This document shows positions 4,401 through 60,330 of a DNA stretch of 64,000 nt, in pieces. The notes beneath the pieces are model-generated. The model did no database searches, had not been told where the DNA came from, and was given only the letters and a program-made list of their open reading frames with translations. This DNA comes from Ailurus styani (taxonomy: Eukaryota > Chordata > Mammalia > Carnivora > Ailuridae), in NCBI GenBank assembly GCA_002007465.1, contig LNAC01000753.1, positions 313,213 through 377,212 on the forward strand, written 5' to 3'. The position numbers and the translations under genes were made by a program. Every line of letters starts with the position of its first letter. Positions within the stretch are counted from its first letter, which is position 1.

Positions 4401-5566
4401 CCTAACAGACACATCTAATGTGAGCACATACACATTCCCGTCTAGGGCACCTGGGACAATGGGAAGGGTGTAGACAAAGGACAGCCTATTCTTCCCCGGC
4501 CTGATGCTTAACCAACCTCGGTAAGAAACACGAATATATGAACTCTTCATCACCAACAAAGTAGAAATTCCATGAACCAACTTCCATTTTCTGGTCCAGT
4601 GTGTGAAGAGCTTGGAAGTCATCAATCCACCCTAATAATAAGCAAAAAGCTGAACACAAGGCAAAAAATCAACGACTCTTCTTAGCTCACTCAGAGAAGT
4701 GAGATCATAGAGGCCCCTGCTACCCCCAAAACTGGAGAGACCAACAGGTGAATATGGAGAATCACAACCTACTGGAGCAACAAGCTCTGGGGGAACCTTG
4801 TCTGGACAATGAACCCTGAGCTGGAGTGGATGAACAGCCGGAAGTCACCACGGACGAGCCCGACAGATAAAGACTCCAGGGGCATTGGCTACAGACAGGC
4901 TCCCATACCTCTGTGAGTTTTACCTCTGGGAGCTTCACGAGGTGTCTCATCGTGAATAATGAGAGACAGATCCCTTCGTCCTTCCAGCCAGGGGAGAAGA
5001 AAAAGAATCATTTTGAAATCTGCCAGAGCATTCTGTTCTTAGCAAGGTCTTCCCTCAAGGGAAACCATTCTCCCACAGCTAACCTATTGGGAGTTTATCA
5101 GAGCCTAACCAACCTGGGAAAAGGGACATACTCAAATCCAGCCTGCCCCTAGCCTTCTACATGGAGGAAGGGAAACAGTCCTTTTTAATCACCTCTGGCC
5201 ACCCTGTCTCACCTCTGTGGGAGAGAAACTGAGAAGCATTTGTGAAGGTGACAGCCCGGGGCACAGACCTATCATAGGACTATAGAATGTAACTATAGTT
5301 ATAGAACTAGTATGTAGTATATAACTAGAATATAACTAATAACATCTAGGATGTAACTAGTATGTAATGTTTGAATTACATACTCTCCTCCCTCTAGAAC
5401 TTAACACCACACCACTAAAGGCCTATTTACTGGAGTTCCTTTTACCCAGCATATCATACCCAGTGTTGAAGAAAAACTTACAAGGCATACTAAAAGGCGA
5501 AAAACGCAGTGTGAAGAGACAAAGAGGCAAAAAACATAGTTTGAAGAGACAAAGCAAGACTCAGAT

Positions 5567-5812
5567 ATGGCAGGGATGTTGGAATTATTATACCAGGAAT
5601 TTAAAACAACTATTATTAATATGTTAAAAGCTATAATGGAAAAAGTAAACAACATGGAAGGACAAATAAATAATATAAACAGAGAGATAAAAATGCTCAT
5701 AAAAAATCATAAAGAATTACTGGAGATCAAACACTGCAACAGAAATGAAATGAAGAATGGTTCTGATGGACTCAGTAGTAAACTAGGCACAGCTGACGGA
5801 AGAATCTTTTAG
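5567..5812 (+). pseudogene. L1 ORF1p remnant (coiled-coil part)
   Basis: The 81-residue frame begins MAGMLELL and contains 'NMLKAIMEKVNNMEGQINN' and 'NREIKMLIKNHKELLEIK', a heptad-like Leu/Ile/Met pattern typical of the N-terminal coiled coil of L1 ORF1p, the RNA-binding trimeric chaperone of LINE-1. A complete ORF1p is several hundred residues, so this is a fragment. The frame stops at 5812 and ORF1-like sequence continues in broken frames downstream to about 6480. It is non-functional. Confidence 0.7.
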
Positions 5813-26365: not shown

Positions 26366-26450
26366 ATGAATACAATATCCCTTTGCTGTGATATGGAAGG
26401 TGGGCTGGAAAAGTCTTCAGTGGGAGGAAGTGAGGAGGGACTTTAAGAAT

Positions 26451-26654
26451 TTTTTTTTTAAGATTTTACTTATTTGACAGAGAGAGAGAGAGAGAGAGAG
26501 ATCACAAGTAGGCAGAGAGGCAGGCAGAGAGAGAGGAGGAAGCAGGCTCCCCACTTGAGCAGAGAGCTGGATGCGGGGCTCGATCCCAGGACCCTGAGAT
26601 CATGACCTGAGCCAAAGGCAGAGGCTTTAACCCACTGAGCCACCCAGGTGCCCC
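26451..26654 (-). mobile_element. CAN-SINE 7 (mustelid type), nested
   Basis: Reverse-orientation full copy: T-run, AAGATTTTACTTATTTGAC, GA tract, CAAGTAGGCAGAGAGG and terminal GAGCCACCCAGGTGCCCC. AAGAAT occurs on both sides (26445-26450 and 26655-26660), and these bases lie in the tail of the older CAN-SINE 8. Confidence 0.93.
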
Positions 26655-26660
26655 AAGAAT

Positions 26661-26687
26661 ATTTTTTAAAAATATATTTATTTATTT

Positions 26688-26722
<35 letters not shown>

Positions 26723-26877
26723 TGAGCACAAGCAGGGGGTGCTGCAGGCAGAGGGAGGGGGAGAAGCAGGGTCCCTACTGAGCAGTCAGCCCAATGAAGG
26801 GCCTCGATCCCAGGACTCTGGGATCATGACCCAAGCCAAAGACAGATGCTTAACCAACTGAGCCACCCAGGTGCTCC
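26661..26877 (-). mobile_element. CAN-SINE 8 (older), host of SINE 7
   Basis: Reverse-orientation copy with ATATTTATTTATTTGACAG, a long GA tract and GAGCCACCCAGGTGCTCC. Its duplications AGGAGGGACTTT lie at 26433-26444 and 26878-26889, outside both SINEs, which shows that SINE 8 came first and SINE 7 then entered its tail. Confidence 0.93.
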
Positions 26878-55391: not shown

Positions 55392-55590
55392 CCTGCGGCG
55401 CCTGGTGGCTCAGTTAGTTAAGCGTCCTTTGGCTGAGGTCACAATCTTGCCGTCATGGGATTGAGCCCTGCGTCAGGCTCCACGCTCAGTGCAGAGTCGG
55501 CCTGGAAATTTCGCCCTCCTCCTCCCCTCGCCAGCACTCCCTCTCTCTCTCTCTCTCTCAAATAAATAAATAAAATCTAAAAAAAAAAAA
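55392..55590 (+). mobile_element. CAN-SINE 9 (older, diverged)
   Basis: Head GGCGCCTGGTGGCTCAGTTAG and tail AAATAAATAAATAAAATCTA with poly-A, but the body is diverged. ATCCAGTCTC duplications at 55382-55391 and 55591-55600 are intact. Confidence 0.9.
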
Positions 55591-55600
55591 ATCCAGTCTC

Positions 55601-56184
55601 ATGATTTCAGAGCCATCCCTTGATACATCACTGCAATGCATTCCCCAACTTGACATAACCCCAAATAAGTTATTATTAATAAAGCATACCAGGCACTTCG
55701 AGGGCTAATCAAGAAAATCATGACCAACAACCCTGCGGAGACGCTAGCATACCCAGAAGTGGGTACACGCATTACACATGTGTGTGGATAGAGACACACC
55801 CCAGATTTATAGCTCATCCCTGAATCATCTTTAGTGGGTTTATCCTAAATACAGATAATATATTCAATGTTGATAATAGCTAAGACCTTTAAAATCCTCT
55901 CGAGGAAAACACACACGGTGCGACCGTTCACATTCCCTTGCACTGATTGATCGACTGGTTTTCTGGTTGCTCCAGCCTCCCAAGAATAAGAGGGCATTAG
56001 AAAGATAACAACTAAGAAACATAAGACAGAGTGCAAACACAAACACTGACACAGGACTTCCCCAGAACACTTGCTTCCCAAGATAGTACAACTTGAAACT
56101 TGAAAAAGTATCGGTTTCCCAGGTAGACCAGGGTGGGAGAGACGCAGGATCAGTGTGCTGCGACTGGTTTGGGGGCCTCGAGGT
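55601..56184. other. unannotated sequence left of the inverted duplication
   Basis: No gene or repeat recognised in this 580 bp. Confidence 0.3.
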
Positions 56185-56562
56185 TTGGGGTTCGTACTCT
56201 TTAAACCTGATCTAATGCGGAAGGAACTTTTTTTTTTTAAACATCTTATTTATTGACAGAGAGAGAGAGATTACAAGTAGGCAGAGAGGCAGGCAGAGAG
56301 AGAGGAGGAAGCAGGCTCCCTGCCAAGCAGGGAGCCCAATGTGGGGCTCGATCCCAGGACCCTGAGATCATGACCTGAGCTGAAGGCAGAGGCTTAACCC
56401 ACTGAGCCACCCAGGCGCCCCCGGAAGGAACTTTCTTAAGGCAGAGTTGCACCACTGTTTTTCCCACCCAGCTATGAACGAGTCGGTCTATCTGCCTGTG
56501 ACTAACCAAATATACCTGCGAGAATCAACAACTGTCAACCCACACTTGTGGGGCAGAGGTCC
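56185..56562 (-). repeat. left arm of inverted duplication
   Basis: These 378 bp are the reverse complement of 57145-57522 with no indel and two mismatches (56519 and 56544). The arm contains unique sequence on both sides of a complete SINE together with its target duplications, so the whole block was duplicated after the SINE inserted. Homology stops sharply at both ends (56184/57523 and 56563/57144). Confidence 0.95.
56231..56421 (-). mobile_element. CAN-SINE 10 (mustelid type) in left arm
   Basis: Reverse-orientation full copy from an 11-T run to GCCACCCAGGCGCCCC. Target duplications CGGAAGGAACTTT lie at 56218-56230 and 56422-56434. Confidence 0.97.
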
Positions 56563-56768
56563 TCCAGCCCTGTGGTTGGGAAGGAGGCCTCCAGCACTGT
56601 GTCTGAATTCTGACAAGGGCAAAGACAAGGGCAAGGACACCTTTGGCCAGGCTCTGTTTCTACTCTAAGAGAACTCCAGGATCTGTTTTTTATTCTGGGC
56701 AGATGTCCTCTCTCACTGTGATCCTCTTGAAGATGGATGGTGTCCCCTTTAGAACCCGCTAACACTCT

Positions 56769-56790
56769 CTGTGTGTGTGTGTGTGTGTGT
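56769..56790. repeat. (GT)n microsatellite
   Basis: Eleven GT units preceded by CTCT. Confidence 0.95.
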
Positions 56791-56859
56791 CCCTTGGAGG
56801 AGGGTGACATGGAGGGGCGGAGATTTGTGCACTTCGCCATAAAGAAGAACAGCTGGATA

Positions 56860-57065
56860 ACGTCCCAGGCACTGCACCAAGCACTTGCCGTACAGAGTGA
56901 GTCCTCTCCACAGCACTGGGAGGACCCATGCCATCACAGGAGCCACGGTGTGTAGCTCCTGGAAAGGGGATGCTGGGAGGGTAGCAACTTGCTCAAGGTC
57001 ACACAGCGGCAAGGGGGGGAGGGGAGACTGAGAATTTGCACTCAGGTCTCTCAGATCCTAAATGT
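56860..57065 (-). repeat. MIR fragment in the spacer
   Basis: 'CAGGCACTGCACCAAGCACTTG', 'AGCAACTTGCTCAAGGTCAC' and 'ACAGCGGCAAGG' follow the reverse MIR consensus. It shows that the spacer is old mammalian sequence, not newly arrived DNA. Confidence 0.75.
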
Positions 57066-57144
57066 TTGCCCTTCCTTCCTGGACAGTCCCACCTCTTGTA
57101 AACAGCCTGGCTGCCAGGACTTGGCAGGAAGCCACCTTCTTCGT

Positions 57145-57522
57145 GGACCTCTGCCCCACAAGCGTGGGTTGACAGTTGTTGATTCTCACAGGTATATTTG
57201 GTTAGTCACAGGCAGATAGACCGACTCGTTCATAGCTGGGTGGGAAAAACAGTGGTGCAACTCTGCCTTAAGAAAGTTCCTTCCGGGGGCGCCTGGGTGG
57301 CTCAGTGGGTTAAGCCTCTGCCTTCAGCTCAGGTCATGATCTCAGGGTCCTGGGATCGAGCCCCACATTGGGCTCCCTGCTTGGCAGGGAGCCTGCTTCC
57401 TCCTCTCTCTCTGCCTGCCTCTCTGCCTACTTGTAATCTCTCTCTCTCTGTCAATAAATAAGATGTTTAAAAAAAAAAAGTTCCTTCCGCATTAGATCAG
57501 GTTTAAAGAGTACGAACCCCAA
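57145..57522 (+). repeat. right arm of inverted duplication
   Basis: Mirror image of 56185-56562; position p in one arm pairs with 113707-p in the other. CT tract (13 bases) and A-run (11 bases) are the same length in both arms. Only 57163 and 57188 differ. Confidence 0.95.
57286..57476 (+). mobile_element. CAN-SINE 11 in right arm, duplicate of SINE 10
   Basis: Identical to SINE 10 by eye, including tail length and target duplications (AAGTTCCTTCCG on both sides). It was therefore copied as part of the block and is not an independent insertion. Confidence 0.97.
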
Positions 57523-58799
57523 GCCCATCAGGGAAGAGAGGAACTAAAGGGAGGAGAGATCCAGGGAGCTGACACAGGGGCTGAGGCAGAAGCGGAGAAT
57601 GCGAGAGGGGGCACAACAAGGCCATGAAGAGGGGCGCTCGCGGCAGCAGAACAGAGTTGCCCGTCCGTGCGTGAACACCTTGCTGGCGCTTCTTCTGGCG
57701 CCGGGAGCTGCTTCTCTGGTGTTGGGGGTGGGGCTCAGGCCTCCCCGCATCCTCACGGGCCTCTGCCCGCGCGTGGCAGGCCCACGGAGGACCGATGCTC
57801 CCGCAGAAGAGACGGAAGAGTGGGAAGCAGATCCAGATCCGGGGAGTATGAAGGGAGGCAGCTGCGTCCCACCCGGACACCGGCTCTGGCACCCTCCCTG
57901 CTCTCAGATCACCCCTGCACAGGGGGCATCGGGAGACACCTGGTACACGCCCATCGCAGGGAATGCCGTCAACACATCTGGAGAAAGACGGGAGGCCAAA
58001 CCAACGTTAACCGATTTCTAGGCTGGTGTCCACGTCGAAGTTTGCTTATGAGCTGTCCGGGCGATCCAAAAATTAAGTTAGTCACTGGAAATTTTATTTT
58101 CACCAAGGGGTGGAAGCTAGGCCGGTCTGACCTCGCCTGAGACTCAGGTATGTCTGGCCGTGTGTGACGACCTCGGGCCACGGGCACTGGAAAGAAGCTC
58201 ACTGAAGGGGTGTGTGTGTGTGTGTGTGCGCGTGTGTGTGTGTCAGAGAGAAGCTTCCTCTCCCAGGCAGCCTGGAGAAGAGAGGCACGTTGACTCCTGT
58301 GGAGGGAAGGGCAGAAAAGAAGCTAAGGGAGCATTTCTGCATCCAGCTCAGAGCCACGAGGGTCTGGACAGTGGTGTCCAGCTGGCACAGTGCCACTGCA
58401 GGGGAGAGGCGCGTGGGTTCCGTCTAAACACGGAACATCGCGTTCCACAGAGCAGACTCCAGGGATGCGCTGAGAGGACTCAGGCACCAAGAGGGTTTGA
58501 GCTTGGCAGCTCCAGGAGATACACCCTTGGCGGGGACCTCATCCTTCTCAGGAAAAGTTCTGGCCAGGGCCGATTAGGGGACAGGCAACACCCACAAAGC
58601 AGACCGAGACGTACGACATCAAATGGCTGTTCCTGAGCAACAACCCCTGGACCACTTAGAATCAAACGGATAAGACTATGGGAAGAGAAAGAGGTTACCC
58701 TGACTCATGTAATAACCTCATTATAATCCAGGCCAGGAGTGGAGACCTGGAGAAACTCAGGTGGAGCCTTCAGGTGGAAACTTCAGGTGGCACCAACTT
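57523..58799. other. unannotated GC-rich sequence
   Basis: CpG is frequent at about 57620-57800. ORFs of 140-158 residues on the plus strand overlap in two frames and lack domains. Confidence 0.35.
58210..58243. repeat. (GT)n microsatellite
   Basis: About 17 GT units with a GCGC interruption; alternating purine-pyrimidine sequence with Z-DNA potential. Confidence 0.95.
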
Positions 58800-58980
58800 G
58801 GGCGCCGGGGTGGCTCAGTCGGTGAAGCCTCTGCCCTCGGCTCAGGTCATGATCTCAGTGTCCTGGGATCGAGGCCCACACTCGGTTCCCTGCTTGGCAG
58901 GGGAGCCTGCTTCTCCCTCTCCCCGCATCCCCACTCATGCTTGTTTTCTGTCAAATAAATGAAATCTTTAAAAAAAAAAA
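58800..58980 (+). mobile_element. CAN-SINE 12
   Basis: Head GGCGCCGGGGTGGCTCAGTC, B-box region GGGATCGAGGCCC, short CT body, AAATAAATGAAATCTTT and poly-A followed by a GA/GAAA tail (58981-59014). A clear target duplication was not found. Confidence 0.9.
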
Positions 58981-59090
58981 TAGAGAGAGAGAGAAAGAAA
59001 GTAAAAGAAAGAAACCCCTTGCAAACCTGATGGGGCTTTAGTCAGCCAGTGTTTGCACTCAGATGTACTATGTAGCAAGAAAAGCACTGG

Positions 59091-59303
59091 GGTGCCTGGG
59101 TGGCTCAGTGGGTTAAAGCCTCTGCTTTCGGCTCAGGTCATGATCTCAGTGTTCTGGGATCGAGGCCCGCATCGGGCTCTCTGCTTAGCAGGGAGCCTGC
59201 TTCCTCCTCTCCTTGTCTCTCTGCCTGCCTCTCTGCCTACTTGTGATCTCTCTCTCTCTGTGTCAAATAAATAAATAAAATCTTTAAAAAAAAAAAAAAA
59301 AAA
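59091..59303 (+). mobile_element. CAN-SINE 13 (mustelid type)
   Basis: Full-length with AAATAAATAAAATCTTT and a poly-A run of about 20. Exact 14-bp duplications AAGAAAAGCACTGG at 59077-59090 and 59304-59317 indicate youth. Confidence 0.97.
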
Positions 59304-59317
59304 AAGAAAAGCACTGG

Positions 59318-60330
59318 AAGCTAAGCGTCAGAAGGTGGACAAGCCAGATACTGACCCTGGGACACTTATCCCCTCGGGAGCAGAAGGTGTCACGGGGGTA
59401 ACAGATAATTGCAGCGTATGGTGGCAGTACCTGCAAGGGTTATCAGCCAGGTATTAGAAAGCATAAGGAAGGGGCATGAGATGCCAGCTACCCCAGGGCC
59501 CACTCAGTGGCTACAAATACCCCTTCCTAATAAAAGGAACCAAGGCTCTCTGGGAAAATGGCTGATTCCAGGTCTGGAGCAAGAAATGCACAATGTGACC
59601 CCAGAAATCTTCCCATACCAGATAGCCAGAAAGTGATCAAAGGTGACCAGGATCACACCAGAAGGACCTAGAAGCCACCCAGAGAAGGGCTCCTGGAACA
59701 AGGCGAGGATAATGTGAGCGTTAAACAGAATAAAAACTGTAATAAGGGTGCCTGGGTGGCTCAGTTGGTTGGGCGACTGCCTTTGACTCAGGTCATGATG
59801 CCAGAGTCCTGGGATCAAGTCCCACATCGTGCTCCCAGCTCCATAGGGAGTCTGCTTCTCCCTCTGACCTTCTCCCCTCTCATGCTCTCTCTCACTCTCT
59901 CTCTCTCAAATAAATGAATAAAAAAAAAACTTAAAAAATAAAAAATAAAAATAAAACTGTAATAAATTGAAACACGTATTTAAATCCCTGAGGTCATAAT
60001 GATACAAAACCAAATCAAACCAACAAAACACTCAATTGGGTCACAAATGCCTGAAAACCAATAAATGAAAGACAAAGAATAAAGCTGTGTGTGGTCTTTC
60101 CCATATGGACAGCACTCCAAGGTAAGCAGACAGGGGATGAGGAAGCGCTTTCCTTTCTAGAAGTATTCTACCGGGAAATTAAACATGGTTTCCAGAATGA
60201 AAACGCCACGATGCTGTCATCCCCGTCAACTGTCAATGCTGTCATATCCCGGGCACTGAACGGCCACAGCGGCCAACATCACAGAGAGACAACCAGTCGG
60301 CACCATGGGGACACTCACTGAATAGCGTAA
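59318..60330 (+). repeat. possible old L1 3'-UTR-like repeat, split by a SINE
   Basis: 'CCTTCCTAATAAAAGGAACCAAGG', 'CCAGGTCTGGAGCAAGAAATG', 'AGAAAGTGATCAAAGGTGAC', 'GAAGGACCTAGAAGCCACCCAG' and 'AAATTGAAACACGTATTTAAATCC' recall a common old mammalian 3'-end repeat. The family is not assigned with certainty. Confidence 0.4.
59746..59952 (+). mobile_element. CAN-SINE 14
   Basis: Head GGGTGCCTGGGTGGCTCAGT and CTGCTTCTCCCTCTGACC body with a complex A-rich AAAAAATAAAAAATAAAAA tail. Duplications AAAACTGTAATAA at about 59733-59745 and 59953-59965. Confidence 0.95.

What the first reader, a model, noticed from the sequence alone, without database searches (positions are those of the whole stretch)
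56185..57522. Near-perfect inverted duplication with a 582-bp spacer
Two 378-bp arms are reverse complements without indels, even across an A-run and a CT tract that normally vary in length. Each arm includes a mustelid SINE, its target duplications and unique flanks. The block was therefore copied as DNA after the SINE inserted, not by retrotransposition. A template switch in replication is the usual explanation for a short inverted copy placed a few hundred bases away. The structure can extrude a cruciform, invert its spacer, or, if transcribed, fold into a long double-stranded RNA.
Basis: seen in the sequence. Interest (0 to 1): 0.8.

Follow-up and report, generated by a model that had tools for sequence, protein, structure and literature searches.

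The report
Recent inverted duplication containing a SINE
A 378-base piece of what looks like carnivore DNA, including an older mobile element, was copied backwards a few hundred bases from its source; this is a neat, probably recent example of a well-known kind of copying error, with no function shown.

Summary
Arms 56185-56562 and 57145-57522 (378 bp) are reverse complements at 376 of 378 positions, with no indel and a 582-bp spacer. Each arm holds the same CAN-type SINE inside the same 13-bp target-site duplication, plus unique DNA on both sides, so the block was copied as DNA after the SINE inserted. Both mismatches are CpG transitions, one per arm: this fits germline decay after a real duplication and argues against a foldback artefact. 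Similarity falls to background outside the arms. With assumed rates the event is 0.5-1.3 My old (95% 0.06-4.8), younger than the SINE. The most likely origin is a replicative template switch or fold-back copy. New clue: the left arm, not the right, ends in a 5-bp sequence (GAGGT) also found just outside its outer edge, as expected if the left arm is the copy. This is weak (p 0.05-0.15) but predicts an exact empty site. No function is shown: no Rfam match at gathering score, no Pfam match in 10 nearby ORFs. A 582-bp loop makes cruciform extrusion doubtful. No mammalian genome could be searched. A new member of a known kind.

The parts
56185..56562 (+). Left arm (378 bp); weakly favoured as the inserted copy
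   Evidence: copy status: (p 0.05-0.15)
57145..57522 (-). Right arm (378 bp), reverse complement of the left arm, 376 of 378 identical
56563..57144 (.). Spacer, 582 bp; its only other match in the window is 17 bp (E 0.006); contains a (TG)n run and a stretch that looks like an ancient MIR (recalled)
56227..56421 (-). CAN-type tRNA-derived SINE in the left arm
   Evidence: 100% to the copy in the right arm; 71-89% to the 13 other hits in the window
57286..57480 (+). The same SINE in the right arm
56218..56230 (+). SINE target-site duplication, left arm, outer copy (overlaps the T run)
56422..56434 (+). SINE target-site duplication, left arm, inner copy
57273..57285 (-). SINE target-site duplication, right arm, inner copy
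57477..57489 (-). SINE target-site duplication, right arm, outer copy (overlaps the A run)
56180..56184 (+). GAGGT just outside the left arm: candidate junction microhomology
56556..56560 (+). GAGGT at the inner end of the left arm: partner of 56180-56184
56519..56519 (.). Arm difference 1: CpG kept in left arm, TpG in right arm (57188)
56544..56544 (.). Arm difference 2: CpG kept in right arm (57163), CpA in left arm

Best explanation
This is an interspersed inverted duplication. Shown: a 378-bp block of unique DNA, already carrying a SINE with its target-site duplication, exists in two opposite copies 582 bp apart, with sharp edges and two CpG differences. Inferred: in one germline replication or break-repair event, a nascent 3' end switched onto the nearby opposite-sense strand, copied about 378 bp and returned to its own template at a short microhomology, adding the copy without any retrotransposition. 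Inferred more weakly: the left arm is the copy. The strand paused after ...CCTCGAGGT (56184), copied the right arm from its outer to its inner end, and returned at GAGGT to go on with CCTCCAGCC, so the ancestor read ...CCTCGAGGT|CCTCCAGCC... The event is of the order of a million years old and probably neutral (inference). The confidence given is for a real DNA-level inverted duplication by a replicative switch, fold-back routes included; a simple two-switch copy is the favoured form. The left-arm-copy step alone is about 0.6.
For: 376 of 378 identity without indel across an A-run and a CT tract. Same SINE and same 13-bp TSD in both arms, with unique flanks matched too. Ungapped identity outside the arms at background (17 of 60 inward, 16 of 61 outward), so one sharp-edged event. 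Both differences are CpG transitions, one per arm (chance about 0.00025 if errors were uniform; a post-hoc figure). The SINE differs from the consensus of its four closest window relatives (chosen by eye from 10 aligned) at 12 of 185 scored positions, and from the consensus of all 10 at 17 of 194, against 2 of 378 between the arms, so the duplication is younger than the SINE. GAGGT at the left-arm junction. [quoted passage not shown]
Against: No orthologue or read was seen, so direction and date are inferred. The 5-bp junction match is not significant once edge slack is allowed (p 0.05, 0.11, 0.15 for slack 3, 6, 8). The published short-range template-switch scan covers a mutation cluster with 40 nt each side, plus 100 nt (PMC7954356, passages), so a 378-bp copy 582 bp away lies beyond what it surveyed. 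The two arm differences are the two innermost of 9 CpGs (chance 1 in 36), which could mean that conversion has homogenised the rest and the event is older. A gapped local alignment runs some 50 bases past the inner edge at poor identity with a 12-base gap; I take this as chance but did not test it.
Confidence: 0.82

Rival explanations
1. Assembly or library foldback artefact: the same molecule was read twice in opposite sense and joined.
For: Foldback reads are a known long-read artefact (PMC12870357, passages); the arms are nearly identical.
Against: [quoted passage not shown] The only two differences are CpG transitions, one in each arm.
Confidence: 0.06
2. Within the replicative class: a fold-back or inverted-triplication (ODIRA-type) intermediate that later resolved to a small inverted copy, rather than a simple two-switch copy.
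For: Single-copy spacers and short inverted microhomology are hallmarks of fold-back duplications (PMC3907307, passages); interstitial inverted variants are argued to derive from inverted triplications (PMC10766186, passages).
Against: No second long non-SINE inverted pair is listed in the window; the described events are mostly far larger. The routes can leave the same final structure, so sequence alone hardly separates them.
Confidence: 0.25
3. Old palindrome kept near-identical by arm-to-arm gene conversion or template-switch homogenisation.
For: Arms of large palindromes and of short IRs can be homogenised (PMC8981503, PMC8604942, search listing only); both differences sit in the innermost 45 bp.
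Against: No decayed ungapped similarity beyond the arm edges, which partial conversion of an old palindrome should leave (inference).
Confidence: 0.08
4. Two independent SINE insertions in opposite sense, or a foldback DNA transposon with 378-bp terminal inverted repeats.
For: Several SINE copies lie nearby.
Against: Same TSD and same unique flanks in both arms; the unique parts of the arm have no other copy in the window; the outer flanks show no target duplication.
Confidence: 0.01

Closest known systems
Interspersed inverted duplication by template switching (four-point model; FoSTeS/MMBIR)
   Same: Reverse-complement copy of nearby DNA, sharp edges, possible short microhomology, return to the original template (inferred).
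   Different: Longer (378 bp) and farther (582 bp) than the short-range events surveyed in apes (PMC7954356, passages); ancestral state not seen.
Fold-back inverted duplications of human chromosome ends (PMC3907307)
   Same: Two inverted copies with a single-copy spacer; short microhomology at many junctions.
   Different: Those are large and lie beside terminal deletions, translocations or rings, with spacers of 766-70,466 bp; here the copy is 378 bp, is followed by at least 6.4 kb of other DNA, and the spacer is 582 bp.
Inverted Alu/SINE pairs
   Same: Opposite SINEs some hundreds of bases apart that could pair in RNA.
   Different: Here the pair arose by DNA duplication, so unique flanks pair too and identity is over 99%; the other 23 inverted pairs listed in this window are 74-98% complementary over 60-174 nt.
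CAN-SINE (carnivore tRNA-derived SINE)
   Same: Polypyrimidine tract, AATAAA, A-rich tail and target duplications (layout as described in PMC1634856, passages).
   Different: It is a passenger here, not the agent; its tail has ATGTTT where most window copies have an ATCTT-type end.

Membership tests
Interspersed inverted duplication | Two reverse-complement copies including non-repeat DNA | tested here: met
Interspersed inverted duplication | Single-copy spacer and unrelated outer flanks | tested here: met
   within the window only (background identity beyond the arms; only a 17-bp other match of the spacer)
Interspersed inverted duplication | Relatives carry an empty site with only one arm | not tested
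   The genome search did not complete; the other collections searched are microbial or viral
Template switch / MMBIR | Microhomology at junctions | tested here: inconclusive
   5 bp if the left arm is the copy (p 0.05-0.15), 2-4 bp if the right arm is (p 0.41-0.96)
Fold-back inverted duplication (PMC3907307) | Terminal deletion, translocation or ring beyond the duplication | tested here: inconclusive
   at least 6.4 kb of other DNA follows the right arm in the window, so no telomere there; a translocation cannot be excluded without an orthologue
DNA transposon with long terminal inverted repeats | Target-site duplication around the outer ends | tested here: not met
   outer flanks ...GAGGT and GCCCATC... 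differ
DNA transposon with long terminal inverted repeats | Further copies | tested here: inconclusive
   none in the window for the unique arm parts; the genome could not be searched
Gene-converted palindrome | Arms identical while older than their divergence suggests | not testable with these tools
   needs orthologues; no decayed halo
CAN-SINE | Polypyrimidine tract, AATAAA, A-tail, target-site duplication | tested here: met
   13-bp TSD; layout read by eye against PMC1634856
CAN-SINE | tRNA-derived head with Pol III promoter | not tested
   no tRNA scan or repeat library comparison was run; the label is recall

The most novel reading that the evidence does not exclude
A recent, perhaps still polymorphic, one-step DNA duplication made a >99% matched inverted SINE pair with unique flanks; if it lies in a transcribed intron it is a ready-made long dsRNA (editing or circular-RNA site) that no second retrotransposition was needed to create.
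Probability: 0.06. Interest if true: 0.45.

Novelty: new member of a known kind. Interest (0 to 1): 0.27.

Why it matters
It is a clean example of a mid-size (hundreds of bases) inverted templated insertion, a size between the short template switches surveyed in apes and the large inverted variants of medicine. It comes with an exact prediction of the empty site, so the mechanism and the ancestral arm can be tested with one PCR or one orthologous sequence. As one neutral-looking event it changes no view of genome evolution.

Tried and rejected
Rejected: two SINE insertions or a foldback transposon (shared TSD and unique flanks); chance; a known RNA family (0 Rfam matches at gathering score in the window); a known protein domain beside it (0 Pfam matches for 10 ORFs at 55.8-58.1 kb at E 0.1; of 10 further ORFs elsewhere in the window, at E 0.01, one DUF1319 match below its cut-off). 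These 20 ORFs are 20 of the 217 listed; the other 197 were not scanned, and short exons would be missed.

Dropped rows: of the 13 other SINE hits, 10 were aligned (left out: 20986, 55397 and a 42-base fragment at 26662-26703); of those 10, four were chosen by eye for the closest-relative consensus, where columns without a 3-of-4 majority were not scored.

Led nowhere: pattern scans for arm or junction sequence in viral contigs and genome contigs, and a near search in plasmids, gave 0 matches, as expected for mammalian DNA. Nine literature searches showed no title or abstract start about this locus or a mustelid case like it; this is no proof of absence. An attempt to place an old repeat across an arm edge to find the ancestral arm failed: the MIR-like stretch (recalled, no repeat library, no call) lies inside the spacer.

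Full report
Observation. The window holds two arms, 56185-56562 and 57145-57522, that are reverse complements over 378 bp with 376 identities and no indel, 582 bp apart. The repeat finder extends each arm by 3 bp across one more mismatch (56184/57523). The longest exact run is 334. In 10 first-order Markov windows of the same size the longest perfect inverted repeat within 2 kb was 12-16 nt. Of 24 inverted pairs of at least 60 nt listed in the window, the other 23 lie in, or within some 13 bases of, SINE copies (compared by eye), so this pair is alone in containing long unique DNA.

Anatomy. Each arm is outer unique DNA (33 bp), the 13-bp target-site duplication, a SINE in antisense (left) or sense (right), the second target-site duplication, and 128 bp of inner unique DNA. 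The unique parts match nothing else in the window. The 582-bp spacer has one other match of 17 bp (E 0.006), and the flanks tested (55900-56181, 57526-57800) have none. Ungapped identity outside the arms is at background: 17 of 60 inward, 16 of 61 outward. A gapped local alignment runs about 50 bases past the inner edge at poor identity, taken as chance but not tested.

The two differences. At 56519 the left arm keeps CG where the right has TG; at 56544 the right arm keeps CG where the left has CA. Both are CpG transitions, one per arm. If two differences were errors spread evenly over sites and bases, both being CpG transitions has a chance of about 0.00025 (post hoc). This is what germline methylation decay gives after a real duplication, and it weighs against a foldback artefact. 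[quoted passage not shown] It does not replace reads from the animal.

Age. With assumed (recalled) mammalian rates of 1.5-3.5 per billion sites per year and CpG sites 8-12 times faster, two differences give point estimates of 0.5-1.3 My; the 95% ranges together span 0.06-4.8 My. The SINE differs from the consensus of its four closest relatives in the window at 12 of 185 scored positions; those four differ from the same consensus at 5 of 188, 6 of 190, 9 of 191 and 5 of 192, being part of it. Against the consensus of all 10 aligned copies it is 17 of 194. Against 2 of 378 between the arms, the SINE is older than the duplication. Some SINE differences lie in a poorly aligned tail, so the SINE figure is rough. 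Against a simple date: the two differing CpGs are the two innermost of nine (1 in 36), a hint of possible homogenisation of the outer part.

Which arm is the copy. If an insertion returned at a microhomology, the copy should end with letters that also stand just before its start. For the left arm there is GAGGT at 56180-56184 and at 56556-56560; for the right arm only 2-4 bp. Among 4000 random placements per setting a match of 5 or more arose at rates 0.05, 0.11 and 0.15 for edge slack 3, 6 and 8. This is a lean, not a proof. It makes the outer mismatch at 56184 part of the flank, and it predicts an exact empty site (printed).

Mechanism. The most likely origin is a replicative template switch or a break-repair copy using nearby opposite-sense DNA, with return to the original template (inference). 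In great apes short-range template switches are widespread and often leave perfect inverted repeats, but that survey covered each mutation cluster with 40 nt each side, plus 100 nt (PMC7954356, passages). [quoted passage not shown] they lie beside terminal deletions, translocations or rings, while here at least 6.4 kb of other DNA follows the right arm. Interstitial inverted variants have also been derived from inverted triplications (PMC10766186, passages). The present sequence cannot separate these closely related routes.

Consequences. As RNA the region folds into one long duplex, MFE -1027.6 kcal/mol over 1338 nt (no shuffles at this length), but nothing shows that it is transcribed. Rfam gave 0 matches at gathering score in the window and Pfam gave 0 for 10 nearby ORFs. 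Cruciform extrusion is doubtful: in double-stranded DNA a spacer increase from 12 to 100 bp cut IR-induced recombination 300-fold. Against that, in wild-type yeast even a 30-kb spacer stayed above the spontaneous rearrangement rate, and widely spaced repeats interact readily in long single-stranded DNA (PMC10164571, passages). Spacer inversion was not testable.

Limits. The tool that might hold the window's own genome did not answer in six tries. The other collections searched are microbial or viral; they gave no match. Species, read support, orthologues and polymorphism are therefore open.

Verdict. It is a new member of a known kind of rearrangement.

Noticed in passing
26450-26877: Two CAN-type SINEs in the same (minus) orientation almost head to tail (26450-26654 and 26704-26877), perhaps one inserted beside or into the tail of the other.
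   Followed up: no
55397-59929: Cluster of SINE copies around the finding (hits at 55397, 58800, 59089, 59746, besides the two in the arms).
   Followed up: partly
56850-57080: Stretch in the spacer that looks like an ancient MIR element (recalled; no repeat library to test it), which would mean that the spacer is old. Coordinates approximate.
   Followed up: no
56770-56790 and 58210-58243: Two (TG)n/(GT)n runs within 1.5 kb, candidate polymorphic microsatellites.
   Followed up: no
5540-5812: ORF whose letters resemble the coiled coil of a LINE-1 ORF1 protein (recalled); Pfam gave only a DUF1319 match below its cut-off.
   Followed up: partly
21334: The only ambiguous base (N) in the window.
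   Followed up: no
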